Of a DNA stretch of 22,229 nt, positions 13,586 to 22,229 are shown piece by piece. Both the position numbers and the translations under genes were made by a program. Position 1 is the stretch's first letter. Each line of letters opens with the position of its first letter. The stretch covers positions 1-22,229 of the IMG/VR virus record IMGVR_UViG_3300019776_000313. One strand, written 5' to 3'. Source of the stretch: a virus. The notes under the pieces are model-generated. The model searched no databases, had not been told where the DNA came from, and was given only the letters and a program-made list of their open reading frames with translations.

Positions 13586-14070
13586 GGATTGAGCGGACAA
13601 CTGATCCAGAGTTGATTCGCTATGTAATTACTCACGAATCCATCTACCCACATGTTTCTGATGATGGATCGGCAGCCCCTGATGACTATGAGCCTGTCAT
13701 TGGCGAACCAATTTACTGGTTAGCAGTAATGGATGGGCAGCAAGTCGCAGGACTTTTCATGGTTCACCCATGGAATAGCGCAACCGTAGAGATTCACACC
13801 TGCATCTTGCCGTCATGGCGAGGCGTTCAGGCGCGCGAAGCGGCCTCATTGGTTCTGGCGTGGATATTTAACAAAACTGCTTTTCAGAAAGTAGTAACGC
13901 ATGTGCCTGCAACCAATCGGCTTGCCAAAAAATTAGCGCTTGATGCTGGCTTCAGCATTGAGGGCATCAACAGAAAAAGTTTCTTAAAGAACGGCCATTT
14001 GATCGATCAGGCCTTACTTGGAATTACAAAAGAGGAGTGGTCAACATGCCAGTTGCAGCAGCAGTTGTAG
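13582..14070 (+). CDS. GNAT-like acetyltransferase at the gp14 position
   Basis: The 162-aa protein looks like a GNAT fold: an N-terminal strand-helix part, IYWLAVMDGQQVAGLFMVHP for beta2-beta3, then VEIHTCILPSWRGVQAREAA with R-G-x-x-A-R in the place of the acetyl-CoA-binding Q/R-x-x-G-x-G/A loop. THVPATNRLAKKLALDAGF matches the N-x-x-A-x-x-x-A-x-x-x-G-F end motif. In P22 the small head-assembly gene 14 lies here, and related phage proteins with this look occur in the same slot. Substrate unknown. The only upstream start is TTG at 13582, overlapping the previous stop (TTGA). Codons are visibly more A- and T-rich than in neighbours. Confidence 0.75.
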   Translation: MRIERTTDPELIRYVITHESIYPHVSDDGSAAPDDYEPVIGEPIYWLAVMDGQQVAGLFMVHPWNSATVEIHTCILPSWRGVQAREAASLVLAWIFNKTAFQKVVTHVPATNRLAKKLALDAGFSIEGINRKSFLKNGHLIDQALLGITKEEWSTCQLQQQL

Positions 14071-14789
14071 GCAGCGCAATCGTTGGTGGAGCAGTGCAGA
14101 GTCGTGCCGCGAGCAAGGCCGCAAAGGCACAAAGACAAGCAGCTGATCAGGCCAATGAGACTCAGCGCTATATCTACGACCAAACGCGCGAAGACCAAAT
14201 GCCTTGGCAAGATGCCGGACGTGCGGGGCTTAACTCGCTTATGGGCTTGTATGGCTTCGAGCAGAAGCCAGTGCCTGGCACGGGCAAAGCGGCGGTGCCC
14301 GGAACGCCAGCAGGATCAGGCTTATTAGGTGCATTTTTACAGCCAGCCAAGCCTGGTGAAGCAGCTATTCCGCCCGATATGGAATGGCAGCGAGCAGCCA
14401 ATCCGAGTGGCGTCGCCAATTCCTTCATGACCATGGATCCCGGCTATCAGTTCCGACTGAAAGAAGGGCAGCGCAATTTGGAAAACAGCGCAGCAGCACG
14501 CGGCGGCCTGATGTCGGGCAACTTCCTCAAAGCGACCACAAAGTACGGTCAGGACTACGGGGCCAATGAGTTCACCAACATCGCGAATCGTTACTCGGCA
14601 TTGGCGGGGGTTGGGCAGGCAACAAACCAGACCTTAGCCACGGCCGGGCAGAACTATGCAAATGCGTACGGCCAGAACGTCACAAATGCGGGCGCCGCAA
14701 GAGCATCTGGTTACGCGGGGCGAGCAAACGCAATTACAGGGGCACTAGAGACTGGCATGAATGCTTTCGGAAAGTTCGGATCAAAATAA
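14046..14789 (+). CDS. DNA ejection protein, gp7-like
   Basis: This 247-aa protein matches the P22 gp7-type family of ejected virion proteins. It has a small-residue hydrophobic N-terminus (VAAAVVGSAIVGGAV, 3-17), a helical SRAASKAAKAQRQAADQANE segment, then the family core D-P-G-Y-Q-F-R-L-K-E-G followed by N-S-A-A-A-R-G-G-L-M-S-G and KYGQDYGANEF. The C-terminus is Ala/Gly/Asn-rich. Such proteins leave the capsid first and help DNA cross the cell envelope. ATG 14046 has AGAGGAG (14031-14037) eight bases upstream; GTG at 14037 lies in that site and is rejected. It overlaps the GNAT gene by 25 bases. Confidence 0.85.
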   Translation: MPVAAAVVGSAIVGGAVQSRAASKAAKAQRQAADQANETQRYIYDQTREDQMPWQDAGRAGLNSLMGLYGFEQKPVPGTGKAAVPGTPAGSGLLGAFLQPAKPGEAAIPPDMEWQRAANPSGVANSFMTMDPGYQFRLKEGQRNLENSAAARGGLMSGNFLKATTKYGQDYGANEFTNIANRYSALAGVGQATNQTLATAGQNYANAYGQNVTNAGAARASGYAGRANAITGALETGMNAFGKFGSK

Positions 14790-14806: not shown

Positions 14807-16108
14807 ATGGCTTATGACATCGCAGGCGCTTTACGGCCTTTTAACCCGATGAATGCCTACGCCCAAGGCGCAGAGCTTGGTCGTCAGGAGACAGAACGAC
14901 GCGAAGCAAAAGCGTTGACTGAGAGTCGAAAGCAATACGGCAAAAACTACCTCATGGCGATCAGTGCGCAATCACAGCCAGAGTACGGCGAAGGCCAAAG
15001 CTTCAGCAAAAATGCTTTCATGAATGGCCGCATGCTTGGTTTAGACACTGAGCAAGGCCTTGATATGACTAAGCCACAAGTGCCATTTGCTGAGCAGAAA
15101 GCAGCCGGCATCAAGGAGAATATCGCTCCTATCGTTCGGCCAGCGGCCCAGTACGATCAAGGCGCGCACTTGGCACAAGTTGCTCAGGATGCGGCAAAAG
15201 CTGGCGACTGGGATACTTTAGCAGAAATTCAAAAGCTATCCGGCACTGGTGCAGAGTTCGGCATGAATCCCCAGCAGGGGATTGACCCAAATACTGGCCG
15301 ACTCAGTTACTTTGTTACCAGCAAGCAGGGCCAGCCGCGCTTTCTAGGCATCGAGGCGCAGCCAAAGCCGGTATTTCAGGGTGGCTTCCAGATTGATCCT
15401 GCCTCCGGCCAGCCTATTGCCGAACTGCCGATGAGCTCGAAAGATCGCGCCATGATGGGGCGACAGGATCAGCAGTTGCAGGTGACCTTGGCAAATCTCG
15501 GTATGACGCAGCAGCGCATGCAGACTGAAATGCAGGAAAAGGCTCAGAAGCAACAGCTTGAACTACAGGCGCGCGACAATGATCGCCGCGAAGCTGCTGC
15601 AGCAACTGACATTGCCATGGATAGCCTCAATACGCTGACCAAGCACCCTGGCTTGGCGCGAGGCACAGGTAGCGTGCTCGCGCCCATTGCGAGAAACATC
15701 CCCGGCACAGACGAAAAGGGCTTTGCAGCTCAGCTTGAGCAATTCAAAAGTCAAACCTTCTTGCCAGCAGTGCAGCAAATGAAGGGCATGGGCCAGCTTT
15801 CCAACGCGGAAGGTGCCGCACTGCAAAAAGCGGTGGGTAATCTAGACCCTGACATGCCAACGGCGGAGTTTCAGCGTCAGGCAGCAAAAATCATGGCGCA
15901 GATGAGAGCCTACCGGCAGCGCAAGTTTGGTGATCTACCTGCCACGACATGGGATGGCCAGGATAAGGCCAGGCAGAATTCAGGCGGAATGGCTATTGGC
16001 CAGGAACTGAAGACTATGCCAGCGCCATCCACTATGCCTGGTGCAATCGTCAATATGCATGGGATCAGATTCCAGTCTGATGGCAAGTCCTGGCTGAGGG
16101 TCAAATAA
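14807..16108 (+). CDS. DNA ejection protein, gp20-like
   Basis: At 433 aa (P22 gp20 is 471) and placed between gp7-like and gp16-like genes, this is the second ejection protein. It begins with ALRPFNPMNAYAQGAELGRQ, is mostly polar and Gln-rich, and contains a probable coiled coil at about 209-272 (MQTEMQEKAQKQQLELQARD). No enzyme motif is seen. The family forms part of the transenvelope conduit after infection. The start has AGGGG about eight bases upstream (14797-14801 region). The stop forms TAATG with the next gene. Confidence 0.78.
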   Translation: MAYDIAGALRPFNPMNAYAQGAELGRQETERREAKALTESRKQYGKNYLMAISAQSQPEYGEGQSFSKNAFMNGRMLGLDTEQGLDMTKPQVPFAEQKAAGIKENIAPIVRPAAQYDQGAHLAQVAQDAAKAGDWDTLAEIQKLSGTGAEFGMNPQQGIDPNTGRLSYFVTSKQGQPRFLGIEAQPKPVFQGGFQIDPASGQPIAELPMSSKDRAMMGRQDQQLQVTLANLGMTQQRMQTEMQEKAQKQQLELQARDNDRREAAAATDIAMDSLNTLTKHPGLARGTGSVLAPIARNIPGTDEKGFAAQLEQFKSQTFLPAVQQMKGMGQLSNAEGAALQKAVGNLDPDMPTAEFQRQAAKIMAQMRAYRQRKFGDLPATTWDGQDKARQNSGGMAIGQELKTMPAPSTMPGAIVNMHGIRFQSDGKSWLRVK

Positions 16109-18237
16109 TGGCGATTACGATTGAATGGCTGCCGACCAGTCAGCCAGCAGAGCAGCCAAGTAGCCAGCGCTCAAGCCAAGGGATTTTTATTGAAAGCCTG
16201 CCGACCAGCGCTCCCACGCTGGAAAATGCAGTTGCCAATACGCCAGAGGTCGGCGCGCTAACCGTGCCAACGCCGCCCCAACGCAGTGGCGTGACGCGCT
16301 TTCAGGACGCTTTCACCGAGAGCGTGCTTGGCATTCCTCGTGGCGTGCAGCAGTTGGCCATTCAGGCTGGAGGTTCGCCCGAGCAGATTGCAGAAAATCA
16401 GGTAGAGACTGATGTGCGCCGTGGCCAGTACAACAAAGACATCGGCACGCTGCCGGGCTTTGCTGGCGCTGTTGCAGGGCAAATGGTTGGCGGGGCTGGA
16501 CTCATTGGGCTCGCTGGCAAGCTGCCGCGCTATGGCAAGGCCGCACAGGCAGCAATTATGCCTACGACTGTGAGTCGCGGCGCTGCACTCGGCGCTGCCA
16601 ATGCAGGCCTGCAACCTGTCACCTCTGATGAGAGCCGCATCGCCAACGCCGGCATGGGCGGTATCGGCGGCGCAGCTGGCTACGGCATGAGTGTTGGCTT
16701 GCAGTCGATGCTTGATCGCATGACCGGCGGGCAGATCAGCAAGCGTATTGCTCAGCAGGCGCAGCAGTCCGCGCCGAGCGCCCCATCGGCCGAGCAGGTG
16801 CTGGCCAGCGTTGGCGTTGACGCCTCTCAGCTGCCACCCAGCGCGCTCGCATCCGTTGACGACTATGTGCGCCAGGCAATGGCCAGTGGCGGGCGAATCA
16901 AGCCGGAGGAGGCCGCACGGCAGGCGCTGGTTGAGAGCTTGCCAGTACCGATCCCGCAGATCACTCGCGGCCAGCGCACGCAGGACTATGTGCAGCAGGA
17001 TACGGAGTCGCTGCTTGCTGACACAGATACTGGCGCCATGCTTCGCAATCTGCGGCAAAACCAGCGCGAGCTGCTGGCTGCCAACGTGGACAAGGTGGTG
17101 GAGCCATTGGGGCAGTCAGTCACGCGCCAGCAACTCGGCGAGCAGGTTCGCGGTGACTTGCTTGCTCGACGCCAGGCTGCGGCCGCTGGTGTTCGCAACC
17201 TCTACCAGCAGGCAGAGCAGCAGGCAGGCGGCAAACCAGTTCAGGCTAATGCGCTGGTGGACTTCTTCAATGCCAATGAGGGGCTGGAAGGAGTTGGCGA
17301 GCTGTTGAGTCGAGCAAAGGCACTAAAGATCGTTGGCGCTGACAAGGAAGGCACGCTCATTGCCAATACGGTGCCGCTGGCCAAGCTGAACGATCTGCGC
17401 CGATCGGCCACTGTTGTTGGCGGCGGCGCTGATCCAACAAAGGGCTATTTTGCCGGCAAAACCAAGGGTGTGATAGATGACTTAGTGGCTCAGGAGGGTG
17501 GCAACGCCTACCAGCCAGCCATTCAGGCACGCCGCAAGATGGGCGAGGAGTTCGACAATAACCAGGGCGTCGGCGGGCTGCTGAGAAAGCAGGGCGGCCG
17601 CTTCGGCGCTGACTTCGCCGTGCCCGACGAGAAAGTGTTTGATCGCGTCGTGAAGTCTGGCTCTATCAAAGACCTTGATCGCCTGCTGAAAGTGGCCGGC
17701 CCAGAATCGATGGGCTCACTGCGCGCCACGCTGGGCAATCACCTTCGTGAAACGATGGTGGGCGATGTGAATGGTCCAACGACGATCTCACTCAGTGCGC
17801 TTGAGCGTGAAATGAAGCTCATCGGCCCTGAGAAGCTGGAGCGCATCTTGGGTAAAGGTCCGACATCGCAGCTCAACCAGGTCGTGTCGGCGGCACGCCT
17901 CATCGAGCGCAAGCAGCCAAATCTCGCCGGCGGCAGTCAGACGACCTCGCGCATGGCGAATTTGCAGAACATGGGCTGGTCAATCATCGAGCGTGCAGCA
18001 GGCGCCATTCCGATGGTCGGCCCGGCAGCGGCAGGTATTGCTAAGAAGGGCGCCAAGGATGTTGCCGATAGCCGTCAGCTCAAGCAGGCGATGCAGCCCA
18101 TGAGCGAAGAGTTACGCCAAGCAATGCGTCAGCGATCAAGGCCCGTCACTGGGGTTAACGCCCTCATGTCGATGTTCGGGGGCGCTGCGCTTCCAGGCTA
18201 CGGTAACTATGCGCCAGAGGATCTGCAGCAGCAGTGA
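16108..18237 (+). CDS. DNA ejection protein, gp16-like
   Basis: The 709-aa protein (P22 gp16 is 609) is the third and largest ejection protein by position. The N-terminus is Pro/Ser/Gln-rich (about 1-55). A Gly/Ala-rich apolar region at about 115-140 (GFAGAVAGQMVGGAGLIGLA) and another near the C-terminus (AAGAIPMVGPAAAGIAKKGA) could insert into membranes. Between them lie long helical parts with RQNQRELLAANVDKVVEPLG and a Lys/Arg-rich middle. P22 gp16 is needed in the particle for DNA to cross the inner membrane. The last 102 bases overlap the leftward gene at 18136-18360. No lytic transglycosylase motif was recognised. Confidence 0.8.
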   Translation: MAITIEWLPTSQPAEQPSSQRSSQGIFIESLPTSAPTLENAVANTPEVGALTVPTPPQRSGVTRFQDAFTESVLGIPRGVQQLAIQAGGSPEQIAENQVETDVRRGQYNKDIGTLPGFAGAVAGQMVGGAGLIGLAGKLPRYGKAAQAAIMPTTVSRGAALGAANAGLQPVTSDESRIANAGMGGIGGAAGYGMSVGLQSMLDRMTGGQISKRIAQQAQQSAPSAPSAEQVLASVGVDASQLPPSALASVDDYVRQAMASGGRIKPEEAARQALVESLPVPIPQITRGQRTQDYVQQDTESLLADTDTGAMLRNLRQNQRELLAANVDKVVEPLGQSVTRQQLGEQVRGDLLARRQAAAAGVRNLYQQAEQQAGGKPVQANALVDFFNANEGLEGVGELLSRAKALKIVGADKEGTLIANTVPLAKLNDLRRSATVVGGGADPTKGYFAGKTKGVIDDLVAQEGGNAYQPAIQARRKMGEEFDNNQGVGGLLRKQGGRFGADFAVPDEKVFDRVVKSGSIKDLDRLLKVAGPESMGSLRATLGNHLRETMVGDVNGPTTISLSALEREMKLIGPEKLERILGKGPTSQLNQVVSAARLIERKQPNLAGGSQTTSRMANLQNMGWSIIERAAGAIPMVGPAAAGIAKKGAKDVADSRQLKQAMQPMSEELRQAMRQRSRPVTGVNALMSMFGGAALPGYGNYAPEDLQQQ

Positions 18238-18360
18238 TGCGATCTCAATAAAGAAGTTCATCACGCGCTCGACATAGGGCGCAGCGAGAAAAATAAGCGG
18301 CATCGCACAGGCCATTACTAAGGCCTGCTGTGGAATACCCGGAATCCATTCGTTACTCAT
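18136..18360 (-). CDS. 74-aa leftward inner-membrane protein at sieA position
   Basis: The gene is read leftward, against all its neighbours. A good ribosome-binding site (AGAGG on the minus strand, complement of 18366-18370) lies five bases before the ATG. The product has two hydrophobic segments, about 13-29 (ALVMACAMPLIFLAAPY) and 34-54 (MNFFIEIASLLLQILWRIVT), then a polar basic tail with KRSAPEHRHEG. In P22, the leftward gene sieA lies between gene 16 and the tailspike and encodes an inner-membrane protein that blocks entry of related phage DNA. This one is shorter (74 versus 160 aa) and not visibly homologous, so the function is inferred from position, orientation and membrane topology. 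Its 3' end overlaps the gp16-like gene antisense. Confidence 0.7.
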   Translation of the reverse strand: MSNEWIPGIPQQALVMACAMPLIFLAAPYVERVMNFFIEIASLLLQILWRIVTVAWKRSAPEHRHEGVNPSDGP

Positions 18361-18371
18361 CTCAACCTCTC

Positions 18372-18394
18372 AGCCCGCCATGCGCGGGCTTTTT
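18372..18394 (+). terminator. Intrinsic terminator before tail adhesin gene
   Basis: A perfect 7-bp stem AGCCCGC (18372-18378) and GCGGGCT (18384-18390) with loop CATGC is followed by TTTT (18391-18394). It lies 16 bases upstream of the adhesin ATG. The same inverted repeat lies in the leader of the leftward 74-aa gene, directly upstream of its ribosome-binding site, so it could affect expression in both directions. Confidence 0.75.
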
Positions 18395-18409
18395 GCTTTG
18401 GAGCAAAAC

Positions 18410-21400
18410 ATGGCAAAGCTGATGCCACCGCTGGTGACGCACTTTGACGACGACAATGGAAATCCATTAGTCGGCGGCAAGGTATTCTTTTATGAGGCAG
18501 GAACCAGCACGCCAAAGAACACCTTCACAGACGCAAACAGCGGCATCCCCAATCCTAACCCAGTTGTGCTTAATGCGCGTGGGGACGCTTCAATTTGGCT
18601 GACGGCCGGCGAGCCATACAAGGCCATCATCAAGCGCGCCGATGACTCTGTTGTGCGCACCGTCGATTTCATCACGCGAGATGCTGCTGATGATGCCACT
18701 TACGTTGCACTGGAGGCTGCTGAGGCGGCGCGGGATGTGGCGATTGAGCAAGCTGGCATAGCCACAGCTCAGGCGGTTATTGCCACTGAGCAGCGCGTGC
18801 TGTCTGAGGCCGGGCGTGTTGGTTCTGAGACTGCCCGCACAGGCTCCGAAGCAGCTCGAGATGCCGCCCTCCTATCCCGTGGCGTATTCGCCAGCACTGC
18901 CGATGCGCTGAGCAAAGGGGTCAACCAATTATCGATTACAGGCAATGGCTCTGGCGGCACTAACGGCGCAGGCTTCAAGGGTACTTTCACCGGTGGCGGC
19001 GGTACTGCTGCTGAGTTCTCATTCACTGTGGCTGGCGGCGCTATTGTCCCATCGAGCGTTGTCATCACGGCATCCGGAAAGAACTACACAAGCGCCCCTA
19101 CTGGCATTGATGTTTCGGCATCTGCCGGTCTGACGGGCGTGACGTTCACTGCTGGTATTGGTTTTAACGCCAGTGTTGGCGAGTATTTTGCCGTGGTGCT
19201 GGCCGGTAGTGATTATGAGTATATTTGGTATCGCGTAGATGCTGGCCCAGTAGCGACTGAGGTCGTGCGAGGGGCGAAAGCTAATGTTCTGCTTCCGTCA
19301 TTCGACATAATTCTGCCAAAAAATCTCTACAACCCGGCCCTTGCGGTGGATGGGTTTATTTATAACTTCGTTGGTGGCACCGCAGGGGCATTCGCTACCA
19401 GCATCATTAGCGGTTATGTGCCGGTGGTTGAGGGCAACACCTACACTTTATGGCAGAAGTCGCCAGAGAAGGGATTTTTTGATGCCGTCTATTGCTACGA
19501 TGCGTCACTTGCATATCTCGGCATGTCAAAGTTAGTCACAAGTAATCCAGTGGTTGCTGGTATGGGGCTTGTAGCAAGTGATCCGGGCGGCACAGGAGGT
19601 TATCGCAAGATAACATTCACGATCCCTATCGGTTCCGGTGTCGCCTACATTGGCGCGCTGATGCTATACAACTACGCCGCTCATACAACCGAAGACTTTG
19701 ACCGAATTCGCAACGCTACTCAGCTTGAAATTGGCTCAGTTGCGACATCATTTGAGGCTTATGGGACGCCAGCTAAAGCCTATATCAAGGAAGAGTATCT
19801 ACCAGATACCCTGCAACTTTCAGCACCAGTAGCGCCAATTATCGACGGCTTTACAGTCACTCAATCTCGTAACTTGTATGACAAGAGCGTGGCTGTTGAT
19901 GGTCATTTAATAAGTTATGGCACCGGCATGAATGTGGCTTTCGCTACCGGCATGGCGCTTGGGTATTTTCCTGTTGAGCCGGGTAAAACCTACACCCTTT
20001 CTATGGGGGATTCGCTAGGATTTGACTCACAGCGCCCTTTGTACTGTCGCGATGCCAACGGATCGTATCTTGGCGTTGATCACACCATTGGTGCTACCCC
20101 CGGAATGGCAAGTCCTCCAACTGGGGTTGTCTGGACCGGCAACAACACCGTCACTTTTACCATTTCTATTGGGTCAGCCATTCGTTATGTCGGGTGTCAA
20201 GCTGCTTACAGCACGCACAATCTCACAGACTTTAACCGTGTTATAGGTTCTATTCAGGCAGAAGAAGGCGTCGAAGCTACCGCTTACCAGCGGTACGCAC
20301 CTTATGGCCTTATTTCACCTAAAGATCAGACGACAACGCCAAGTACCGTAACAATGCCACTATTGATTGAGCGAGTAGGCGACGACATCTATATTCGATC
20401 CAGTTTTGATTCAACTCATGATCTAGTACAGAAAGTCTCACTTTCCGGCGGTGCTGGAGGCACAGTTAATGTCATGGGTGCAAAGAAGATGCCCGTCATA
20501 GCTGAAGGCGCAATAGGAGGCTGGACGAATGGAGTACTGCTGGTGAGCCAAGGTGATGACACCGCACCGTTGCAGTATAACAATACATACATTGGGGCCA
20601 ATCACGGCGCGAGCTTTGTTAAAGAAGTTACGGCAACAGCACACGGAAAAGCAGTGCAGGATGTTGGGTCTGAGTGGACTGATAGTGCGAGTCGAAAGTG
20701 GTATTTGCTGAAAATCGTGGATGCAAATAAGTTGTGGTTTCTATCTGAAAATCTTGCTGTTTATCCTGCATGGTCTTTTGCAGCTACTATTACAGGATCG
20801 ACGCTCACTCACAGTGTTGGCGCTACCAACACCGGAGCAATAACAGTTGCCAGCTTTGTAACTACTCGGCTCTACCCTGCGCTTCAAGGTCAGACCGCAA
20901 AAGTGCTGCTTGACGGCATCACGGAGGTATCAGCAGACGGCCTGTATCGCTGCATGACTTTGGATGTCGTGAACAGTTACACGATCCCAAACCCAGCAGA
21001 TGTTATAGAATTTTTGAAGACCCAAACCGGAAGTAGTACGCAGCCGTCATTTGTTGATATATCTATTGATGCTGATGTGCGTCGAACGACTACTTATCGC
21101 TATGCTGAGAACGGTTCCTCTAACATTGTGGACAGTGTTCAGGTTCTGCAACCAATCACGCTGAATTATTTCGGCGCGACACAGGCGGGTCCGCTGGCCT
21201 ACTCTGGTAAGCAGCTCTGGCAATACATACCAAGAGTTAATCCGGTCGTGGGGGGTATTAAGACTTGGGACTTCAAGGCGCAGGAAAATATTAGCGGGTC
21301 ATTTGAGGTACTTAACTTCGGTACGTCAACTTGGTCTGATGCTAACAACCCACCAGATCGCATGGCGCAGATTGTGAAGACCGCAGGTGTACCAGAGTTC

Positions 21401-21835
21401 GGTCTGATGGTTGGTTACTCTCCATTACGGTCTGTTGGTGTTCCTGCTCTTCGTAAGACTCTGGTCAGTAATGCGTGCTTTCTGTCCAGTAATAGAAAAC
21501 AGTACCCCAGAGCTATCGATGTGGGCGGGCTCTTGCCAGTCGGTAGTTACTTTGAAATTATTGCTTTTCGATCCTACTGGTCTGCAAGCACTAATCTGGC
21601 TGCGACGTGTTTTGTTTGGTATCGCGATGGCAAGAGCATCATTGTGGTCGCAGACTTCCATCAAAACGTATCACTGTCAAAGCTCCCATTACCACCGCAG
21701 TTCACTGGCATGGATGTGGCGGTTGTAGACAAGAGTGCGTCAATGACTCTGCATGGTAACGGTGTGCTGGCTGCTGATGGCCTGCTGGTCAGCGTGACTG
21801 GCGGCTATGGCTATGGCGTTTTTAAATTAAGCTGA
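18410..21835 (+). CDS. Tail adhesin (tailspike/fibre), modular, 1141 aa
   Basis: ATG 18410 follows GGAG (18400-18403) by six bases; an earlier in-frame start at 18380 lies in the terminator and is rejected. Order of parts: a virion-binding head (1-90; GGKVFFYEAGTSTPKNTFTD, similar in style to P22 and other phage tailspike heads); an Ala-rich helical stalk (about 98-160); a Gly-rich beta stretch (170-300); two related modules of about 165 residues starting near 304 (K-N-L-Y) and 487 (R-N-L-Y), each with A-V-D-G, an F-A-T segment, G-x-x-Y-T-L and Y-x-x-D/Y-L-G motifs; then an unassigned C-terminal half (about 650-1141). It should bind, and perhaps cleave, host surface polysaccharide. The second half is clearly richer in A and T than the capsid genes. 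Confidence 0.82.
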   Translation: MAKLMPPLVTHFDDDNGNPLVGGKVFFYEAGTSTPKNTFTDANSGIPNPNPVVLNARGDASIWLTAGEPYKAIIKRADDSVVRTVDFITRDAADDATYVALEAAEAARDVAIEQAGIATAQAVIATEQRVLSEAGRVGSETARTGSEAARDAALLSRGVFASTADALSKGVNQLSITGNGSGGTNGAGFKGTFTGGGGTAAEFSFTVAGGAIVPSSVVITASGKNYTSAPTGIDVSASAGLTGVTFTAGIGFNASVGEYFAVVLAGSDYEYIWYRVDAGPVATEVVRGAKANVLLPSFDIILPKNLYNPALAVDGFIYNFVGGTAGAFATSIISGYVPVVEGNTYTLWQKSPEKGFFDAVYCYDASLAYLGMSKLVTSNPVVAGMGLVASDPGGTGGYRKITFTIPIGSGVAYIGALMLYNYAAHTTEDFDRIRNATQLEIGSVATSFEAYGTPAKAYIKEEYLPDTLQLSAPVAPIIDGFTVTQSRNLYDKSVAVDGHLISYGTGMNVAFATGMALGYFPVEPGKTYTLSMGDSLGFDSQRPLYCRDANGSYLGVDHTIGATPGMASPPTGVVWTGNNTVTFTISIGSAIRYVGCQAAYSTHNLTDFNRVIGSIQAEEGVEATAYQRYAPYGLISPKDQTTTPSTVTMPLLIERVGDDIYIRSSFDSTHDLVQKVSLSGGAGGTVNVMGAKKMPVIAEGAIGGWTNGVLLVSQGDDTAPLQYNNTYIGANHGASFVKEVTATAHGKAVQDVGSEWTDSASRKWYLLKIVDANKLWFLSENLAVYPAWSFAATITGSTLTHSVGATNTGAITVASFVTTRLYPALQGQTAKVLLDGITEVSADGLYRCMTLDVVNSYTIPNPADVIEFLKTQTGSSTQPSFVDISIDADVRRTTTYRYAENGSSNIVDSVQVLQPITLNYFGATQAGPLAYSGKQLWQYIPRVNPVVGGIKTWDFKAQENISGSFEVLNFGTSTWSDANNPPDRMAQIVKTAGVPEFGLMVGYSPLRSVGVPALRKTLVSNACFLSSNRKQYPRAIDVGGLLPVGSYFEIIAFRSYWSASTNLAATCFVWYRDGKSIIVVADFHQNVSLSKLPLPPQFTGMDVAVVDKSASMTLHGNGVLAADGLLVSVTGGYGYGVFKLS

Positions 21836-21890: not shown

Positions 21891-21909
21891 CGGCACACTT
21901 TCCGGCACA
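21891..21909. repeat. CGGCACA direct repeats, possible integrase arm sites
   Basis: CGGCACA occurs at 21891-21897 and 21903-21909, 12 bases apart, and a third GGCACA lies at 21944-21949. Short direct repeats with this spacing within about 100-150 bases of an attachment core are the usual form of integrase arm-type sites. No integrase gene is in the window, so the assignment is inferred. Confidence 0.4.
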
Positions 21910-21932
21910 TCCGCTGGGGTCAGTAGTGTTTT

Positions 21933-21975
21933 ATAGGGGAGTTAAGGCACAACATATTGTGTTTTGCGCCCCTAT
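21933..21975. repeat. Nested inverted repeat
   Basis: A perfect outer 7-bp pair ATAGGGG (21933-21939) and CCCCTAT (21969-21975) encloses an inner hairpin CACAA-CATA-TTGTG (21948-21961). There is no T run after it, so it is a poor terminator. It may be a structured RNA end for the adhesin transcript or a site for integration proteins. Confidence 0.45.
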
Positions 21976-21998
21976 TTGCCACTGTAATACCGGCTTTT

Positions 21999-22023
21999 GC
22001 AGGTTCAAATCCTGCCGTCTTGA
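21999..22023 (+). other. tRNA 3'-end fragment, candidate attR core
   Basis: Positions 21999-22015 form a textbook tRNA T arm: a perfect 5-bp stem GCAGG/CCTGC around the 7-base loop TTCAAAT, with the conserved G-T-T-C-A-A. Seven bases that could be the 3' acceptor strand (CGTCTTG) and an A follow. No matching 5' half exists upstream, and there is no CCA, so it is not a functional tRNA. A 3' tRNA fragment at the end of a prophage is the usual trace of integration into a tRNA gene. The tRNA identity cannot be told. Confidence 0.5.
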
Positions 22024-22051
22024 AATGCAGGCTGGAAGCATGATGGGAAAA

Positions 22052-22082
22052 TTATATTAGACAGGACGGTTTATATTAGACA
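22052..22082. repeat. 12-bp direct repeat TTATATTAGACA, two copies
   Basis: TTATATTAGACA is present exactly at 22052-22063 and 22071-22082, separated by seven bases. On the minus strand each copy begins TGTCTA, so the array starts with TGT and carries a second copy 19 bases in. This resembles tandem transposase-binding sites at ends of Mu-, Tn7- or IS21-like elements, but no transposase is in the window. Confidence 0.6.
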
Positions 22083-22091
22083 ATCGCCCAC

Positions 22092-22115
22092 AAAAAAGCC
22101 CCAGCAATGGGGCTT
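22092..22115 (-). terminator. Terminator of the tRNA-Lys transcript
   Basis: Read leftward, AAGCCCC (complement of 22109-22115) pairs with GGGGCTT (complement of 22096-22102) and is followed by six Ts (complement of 22092-22097). It lies 29 bases past the tRNA 3' end, showing that host sequence extends at least this far left of the tRNA gene. Confidence 0.8.
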
Positions 22116-22121
22116 AGTTTG

Positions 22122-22138
22122 CCTGCTGATTCAGCAGG
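22122..22138. repeat. Perfect palindrome next to the tRNA 3' end
   Basis: CCTGCTGA (22122-22129) and TCAGCAGG (22131-22138) form an 8-bp inverted repeat with a one-base centre, five bases beyond the tRNA-Lys CCA end. As RNA it would form a tight hairpin in the precursor tail and may help 3' processing; it could also be a protein-binding site. Confidence 0.6.
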
Positions 22139-22143
22139 TTATT

Positions 22144-22219
22144 TGGTGGGTCGTCCGGGACTCGAACCCAGGACCAATTGGTTAAAAGCCAACTGCTCTA
22201 CCAACTGAGCTAACGACCC
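22144..22219 (-). tRNA. tRNA-Lys (anticodon UUU)
   Basis: The minus strand folds into a complete 76-base tRNA with encoded CCA (complement of 22144-22146). The acceptor is GGGTCGT/ACGACCC with discriminator A, the D arm reads AGCTCAGTTGGTAGAGC, the anticodon loop is CTTTTAA with the anticodon TTT at 22184-22186, and the T arm has TTCGAGT. The 5' half is nearly identical to lysine tRNAs of gammaproteobacteria such as Escherichia and Pseudomonas. It appears intact, has its own terminator, and is taken as host flank of the prophage. Confidence 0.97.
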
Positions 22220-22229
22220 ATGCTGACTA

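What the first reader, a model, noticed from the sequence alone, without database searches (positions are those of the whole stretch)
18136..18360. Leftward two-helix membrane gene in the sieA slot: candidate superinfection-exclusion gene
Seen: the only minus-strand protein gene in the prophage part, with a good ribosome-binding site, two hydrophobic segments and a basic tail, placed between the gp16-like gene and the tail adhesin. Known: P22 has leftward sieA, an inner-membrane exclusion protein, in the same slot. Inference: this 74-aa protein is a lysogeny-expressed defence gene of a new family that blocks DNA entry, possibly by acting on the ejection proteins encoded next to it. It also overlaps the gp16-like gene antisense by 102 bases, so its transcript could lower expression of that gene.
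Basis: partly seen in the sequence, partly recalled or inferred. Interest (0 to 1): 0.65.

Follow-up and report, generated by a model that had tools for sequence, protein, structure and literature searches.

The report
Small leftward membrane gene, sieA slot
A real but previously unannotated 74-residue membrane-protein gene sits backwards between a prophage's DNA-injection genes and its tail gene, where phage P22 keeps its anti-competitor gene sieA; other phages have an unrelated tiny membrane protein in the same place, so the spot probably often holds genes that block rival phages, though no function has been tested.

Summary
The ORF at 18136-18360 (minus strand, 74 aa) is real and protein-coding. 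It has an AGAGG ribosome-binding site and recurs in two other IMG/VR contigs. Outside its overlap with the upstream gene, 5 of 6 substitutions are silent in its frame (P about 0.002). A 279-bp block (18136-18414), starting exactly at the ORF's stop codon, is about 97% identical among the three contigs, while the upstream gene is about 65% identical and the tail genes diverge. So it looks like a mobile module. It has no relative in Pfam, PHROGs, NCBIfam, PADLOC, the PDB, or the phage, plasmid and species-genome collections.

P22 synteny (gp7, gp20, gp16 position, slot, tail gene) holds. It is not a SieA homologue: the size, motif and sequence tests fail.

Unexpectedly, an unrelated 53-aa leftward membrane protein fills the same slot in Rhodoferax phage P26218, two Manatee Spring phage records and 14 IMG/VR contigs. 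Xanthomonas phage PBR31 has a 116-aa relative. Thus at least three small membrane-protein families, including SieA, share one slot and orientation.

SieA-like exclusion of superinfecting DNA is the best explanation (about 0.45), unproven. Presence in lytic P26218 and integrase-free contigs weakens the lysogeny-only reading. No leftward promoter was found.

The parts
18136..18360 (-). 74-aa small membrane protein gene (family A), ATG at 18360, TGA at 18136-18138
   Evidence: frame conserved in L001 and L002
18366..18370 (-). Shine-Dalgarno-like AGAGG, 5 nt from the ATG
   Evidence: sequence; only SD-bearing hydrophobic minus ORF
18136..18237 (.). antisense overlap with the 3' end of the gp16-position gene (last 33 codons plus stop)
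   Evidence: the 3 substitutions here are all silent in the plus gene and missense in the minus gene
18136..18414 (.). exchange module: about 97% identical in three contigs, flanked by diverged sequence; left edge is the first base of the minus-ORF stop codon
18372..18390 (+). rightward intrinsic terminator-like hairpin after the gp16-position gene; lies in the leader of the leftward gene
18391..18408 (.). dyad TTTTGCT-TTGG-AGCAAAA spanning the terminator tail and the tail-gene RBS; unchanged in all three contigs; role unknown
16108..18237 (+). gp16-position (last ejection-position) gene, 709 aa, positional assignment only
   Evidence: synteny; no similarity to P22 gp16
14807..16108 (+). gp20-like ejection protein
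   Evidence: phrog_2534, E 3e-26; P22-like phages by tblastn
14037..14789 (+). gp7-like ejection protein
   Evidence: phrog_598, E 4e-44; P22_gp7 PF25688, E 5e-6, just under its cut-off
18410..21835 (+). tail/receptor-binding gene with a tailspike-type N-terminus
   Evidence: tblastn of residues 1-97 to tailspikes of PBR31, P26218, X14

Best explanation
The locus is a small mobile module in a P22-type temperate phage carrying a leftward gene for a 74-aa inner-membrane protein. Shown: it is a conserved coding gene, its sequence block has been exchanged between phages as a unit, and it lies where P22 has sieA. Inferred: the protein inserts in the inner membrane and interferes with the injection conduit of incoming related podophages, so their DNA does not enter; SieA does this to gp16/gp20 (PMC10883804). 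Inferred: its exchange and the non-homologous occupants of the slot reflect arms-race turnover of exclusion genes kept beside the ejection genes they match.
For: Purifying selection on the frame: 5 of 6 substitutions silent outside the overlap, P 0.002; fewest amino-acid changes of all six frames and no stops. Slot and orientation as in P22, where sieA is leftward right after gene 16. Ejection proteins gp7-like and gp20-like directly upstream. Hydrophobic helix. Module edges at the gene's stop codon and the tail-gene start. Temperate context: integrase in L002's contig, window and L001 share a tRNA-Lys junction. Slot empty in relatives L007 and L012, so the gene is dispensable. Recurrent occupation of the slot by unrelated leftward membrane proteins: family B, 58% identity between P26218 and MW202655, E 1e-12, 14 more contigs; SieA. 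SieA escape mutations map to gp16 and gp20.
Against: No homologue of known function anywhere searched. No promoter detected leftward, whereas P22 sieA has an annotated one. Only three sequences, few substitutions. Topology uncertain: one helix in the model, not a clear hairpin. Family B also occurs in a lytic phage and in integrase-free records, so a shared exclusion role during lysogeny is not required. Position is not function.
Confidence: 0.45

Rival explanations
1. A small membrane protein with another role during infection or lysogeny (for example modulating lysis timing, membrane potential or receptor display), kept in this slot because it is a permissive gap between the end of the ejection operon and the tail gene.
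For: Amphipathic second helix with E39, Q46, R50 on one face; family B in a lytic phage and integrase-free contigs; a terminator separates the two rightward operons, making a permissive site.
Against: The window already has a holin (PF16080, E 4e-10) and M15 endolysin (PF08291, E 5e-16) in its lysis cassette; orientation opposes late transcription; the one slot gene with known exclusion function, sieA, is a membrane protein (PMC10883804).
Confidence: 0.3
2. The conserved block is mainly a homologous-recombination hinge for swapping tail genes; the leftward gene is real but carried along, with weak or no current function.
For: Block of 279 bp about 97% identical between diverged flanks, tail genes swapped.
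Against: Silent-substitution excess in the leftward frame (P 0.002) and an intact frame in all three; the left edge coincides with the ORF's stop codon; the block extends through the ORF rather than only the junction.
Confidence: 0.12
3. The leftward transcript acts as antisense RNA lowering expression of the gp16-position gene, with the peptide secondary.
For: 102-bp overlap; family B overlaps by 36 bp wherever that end is held; no leftward terminator before the overlap.
Against: The selection signal is at the protein level in the part that does not overlap; no promoter found; P22 sieA does not overlap gene 16.
Confidence: 0.07
4. Spurious ORF: no protein is made.
For: 28% of long minus ORFs in this window are hydrophobic by chance (20 of 72); an open antisense overlap is common (71% of synonymous resamplings).
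Against: RBS, gap placement, conserved frame with silent substitutions.
Confidence: 0.06

Closest known systems
SieA of Salmonella phage P22 (phrog_7745)
   Same: Leftward gene between gene 16 and the tailspike gene, inner-membrane protein, adjacent to ejection-protein genes (PMC10883804)
   Different: SieA is 162-164 aa with three predicted TM segments and an FxRYPxEAxxFNK-type motif; this is 74 aa, lacks the motif, has no significant similarity (E 0.088), and overlaps the upstream gene
53-aa slot protein of Rhodoferax phage P26218, MW202655/MW202557 and 14 IMG/VR contigs (family B, found here)
   Same: Same slot, same orientation, start facing the tail gene, 3' end overlapping the last ejection-position gene, hydrophobic N-terminal half; upstream gp7-like protein is homologous (E 7e-34)
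   Different: No sequence relation by BLASTP (E 2.6) or profile comparison (probability 0.3%); also in phages without integrase
Small exclusion proteins such as T4 Imm and HK97 gp15
   Same: Phage proteins reported to block DNA entry (Imm: PMC11436027; gp15, predicted inner-membrane: PMC10883804); their small size is from my own knowledge
   Different: Different phage types and genomic positions; no similarity tested or claimed

Membership tests
SieA (phrog_7745) | Position leftward between gp16 and tail-gene homologues | tested here: met
   gp16 assignment positional
SieA (phrog_7745) | Sequence similarity or profile match to SieA | tested here: not met
   BLASTP E 0.088; no PHROG hit, while P22 SieA itself hits at 9e-109
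SieA (phrog_7745) | FxRYPxEAxxFNK motif | tested here: not met
   absent from the 74 aa; motif from PMC10883804
SieA (phrog_7745) | About 160 aa, three or more TM segments | tested here: not met
   74 aa, at most two hydrophobic segments
SieA (phrog_7745) | Blocks DNA injection by P22-like phages | not testable with these tools
   needs plating and injection assays
Family B 53-aa slot protein | Conserved LLKPF...KxKR...PL sequence | tested here: not met
Family B 53-aa slot protein | Slot, orientation and antisense 3' overlap with the last ejection-position gene | tested here: met
   (36-bp overlap in B, 102 bp here)
Known anti-phage defence or phage protein family | Match to PADLOC, Pfam, PHROGs or NCBIfam | tested here: not met
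Phage holin | Match to a holin family, location in the lysis cassette | tested here: not met
   no hit; the holin is at 1224-1418

The most novel reading that the evidence does not exclude
The junction between the ejection-protein genes and the tail gene of many podophages is a general exclusion-gene slot. It is filled by unrelated, mostly unannotated leftward micro-membrane proteins (SieA, the 74-aa family, the 53-aa family) that jam the injection conduit of competitors, in lytic as well as temperate phages.
Probability: 0.35. Interest if true: 0.72.

Novelty: new variant of a known kind. Interest (0 to 1): 0.55.

Why it matters
If true, it gives a positional rule for finding small exclusion proteins that sequence searches and gene callers miss, and shows exclusion genes turning over beside the ejection proteins they may target. 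It also offers a cultured test pair: Rhodoferax phage P26218 and its host IMCC26218, whose phage carries a same-slot protein that the public annotation omits.

Tried and rejected
Homology searches of the 74 aa in phages, viral contigs, species genomes, Pfam, PHROGs, NCBIfam, PADLOC and PDB: only two near-identical viral contigs. Two weak PDB hits have names of designed coiled coils, E 0.05 and 1.3. Fold search in the viral library: nothing. Distant DNA matches of the block in phages and plasmids are short chance or terminator-like matches. gp16-profile scans found no prophage in species genomes. Candidate slot ORFs in L030, PAE2 and Rhizobium phage N3_2 either failed the membrane-ORF filter or are not rare under the null, and are not counted. 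A plus-strand rival for the window signal (tail-gene frame extended upstream, which shares third positions) was rejected: stop TAG at 18275-18277 in all three contigs, TAG at 18380 in L001, no start codon in the window in between. A plus-strand rival for family B is weaker but not excluded (BLOSUM 125 against 153; open in 10 of 11); SD-like sites in L059 and L060 favour the leftward frame.

Full report
Observation. The minus-strand ORF 18136-18360 (74 aa, MSNEWIPGIPQQALVMACAMPLIFLAAPYVERVMNFFIEIASLLLQILWRIVTVAWKRSAPEHRHEGVNPSDGP) is present exactly as described, with AGAGG at 18366-18370, 5 nt before the ATG. Its N-terminal 41 codons fill the gap between the end of the 709-aa gene (18237) and the tail gene (18410); the last 33 codons plus stop lie antisense over that gene. 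Hydrophobicity alone is not evidence: 20 of 72 long minus ORFs in the window reach KD 1.6. Only this one also has an SD-like site and less than 70% antisense cover. Shuffling the gap yields a comparable membrane ORF in 3% of trials.

Conservation. Two other IMG/VR contigs (L001, L002) encode it at 97% identity. A block 18136-18414 is 96-98% identical in all three, while the 709-aa gene upstream is only 64-66% identical between the window and the other two (28% in the last 50 bp before the block), and the tail genes diverge from about 18415. The left edge is the first base of the minus ORF's stop codon. In the non-overlapping part, 5 of 6 substituted sites are third positions and silent in the minus frame (simulation P 0.002), with one missense change (S2G). 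The minus frame has the fewest amino-acid changes of six frames and no stop. In the overlap, all 3 changes are silent in the plus gene and missense in the minus gene, so the plus gene dominates there. The plus frame sharing third positions is the tail-gene frame; it is closed by TAG at 18275 in all three and by TAG at 18380 in L001, so it does not explain the signal.

Context. Upstream are gp7-like (phrog_598, E 4e-44) and gp20-like (phrog_2534, E 3e-26) ejection proteins; the terminase also resembles those of P22-like phages. The 709-aa gene is in the gp16 position but has no significant similarity to P22 gp16 (E 0.18). The tail gene's first 97 residues match tailspikes. L002's contig has an integrase. 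The window and L001 share 21892-22229 including tRNA-Lys, L002 only up to 22026, consistent with a prophage end. In P22, sieA is leftward directly after gene 16 with its own annotated promoter. The slot is empty in relatives L007 and L012.

Anatomy. Two hydrophobic peaks (KD 1.81 and 1.85); the second is amphipathic, with moment about 0.5. AlphaFold2 gives one helix, residues 11-59, mean pLDDT 77, on a three-sequence alignment. The topology is thus uncertain. No leftward sigma-70 promoter stands above background. A rightward terminator hairpin lies in the gene's leader.

A second family in the same slot. Scanning the slot in other phages with related tail anchors or ejection proteins gave a 53-aa leftward membrane protein in Rhodoferax phage P26218 and in MW202655, absent from the P26218 annotation. 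The two are 58.5% identical (tblastn E 1e-12). An alignment scan found 14 more IMG/VR contigs. Wherever that end is held, the ORF overlaps the last ejection-position gene by exactly 36 bp, and its start lies 27-53 bp from the start of the divergent tail gene. The leftward frame is the best conserved of six (mean BLOSUM 153 against 125 for the next; substitutions by codon position 23/13/54); because the next frame shares third positions, the frame choice rests on amino-acid conservation, hydrophobicity and SD-like sites in L059 and L060. PBR31 has a 116-aa leftward ORF with a related N-terminus (pairwise E 6e-5). The gp7-like proteins of P26218 and the window are homologous (E 7e-34), but the two slot proteins are not detectably so. 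PBR31 and the records of L060 and L061 carry an integrase; P26218, MW202655 and three 36.7-37.3-kb contigs do not; P26218 is described as lytic (PMC4657236).

Interpretation. [quoted passage not shown] Three apparently unrelated small leftward membrane-protein families in one slot, beside ejection genes, make a SieA-like role the best single explanation for the 74-aa protein, at about 0.45. It is not a SieA family member: sequence, size and motif tests fail. The lysogeny-only reading is weakened by family B's presence in phages without integrase; exclusion by a lytic phage is known for T4 Imm (PMC11436027). Antisense regulation of the upstream gene is possible but without independent support.

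What would change the view: a plating and DNA-entry test, most practically in Rhodoferax IMCC26218 with P26218, and transcript data from a lysogen.

Noticed in passing
L033:4810-4971 (-) = NC_029061; L035:4823-4984 (-) = MW202655; L048-L061 near 3001: A conserved 53-aa leftward membrane protein between the last ejection-position gene and the tail gene, missing from the P26218 annotation; 36-bp antisense overlap in all loci that hold that end.
   Followed up: yes
L031:4579-4929 (-), Xanthomonas phage PBR31: Unannotated 116-aa leftward ORF with an N-terminus related to the 53-aa family and a GGAGG site upstream; overlaps 'internal protein C' by 168 bp.
   Followed up: partly
L035:4866-5000 (+), MW202655: Annotated 44-aa plus-strand ORF faces the leftward 53-aa gene with aligned third positions; probably an annotation on the wrong strand.
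   Followed up: partly
window 18391-18408: Perfect dyad TTTTGCT-TTGG-AGCAAAA between the terminator and the tail-gene start, covering the tail-gene RBS, unchanged in three contigs; could be an operator or an RNA hairpin.
   Followed up: no
window 21892-22229: End of the phage part: 21892-22026 is shared with L001 and L002, 22027-22229 with tRNA-Lys only with L001; a tRNA 3'-end-like stretch near 21995-22025 may be the att core.
   Followed up: partly
window 18136-18237 (+): The last 33 residues of the 709-aa protein are identical in three contigs although the preceding region is the least conserved; the C-terminus may have been acquired with the module.
   Followed up: partly
window 14807-16108 and L001, L002, L007: gp20-like protein is mosaic among relatives (96%, 71%, 67% best-segment identity), and the gene in the gp16 position of L007 looks different from that of the window.
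   Followed up: no
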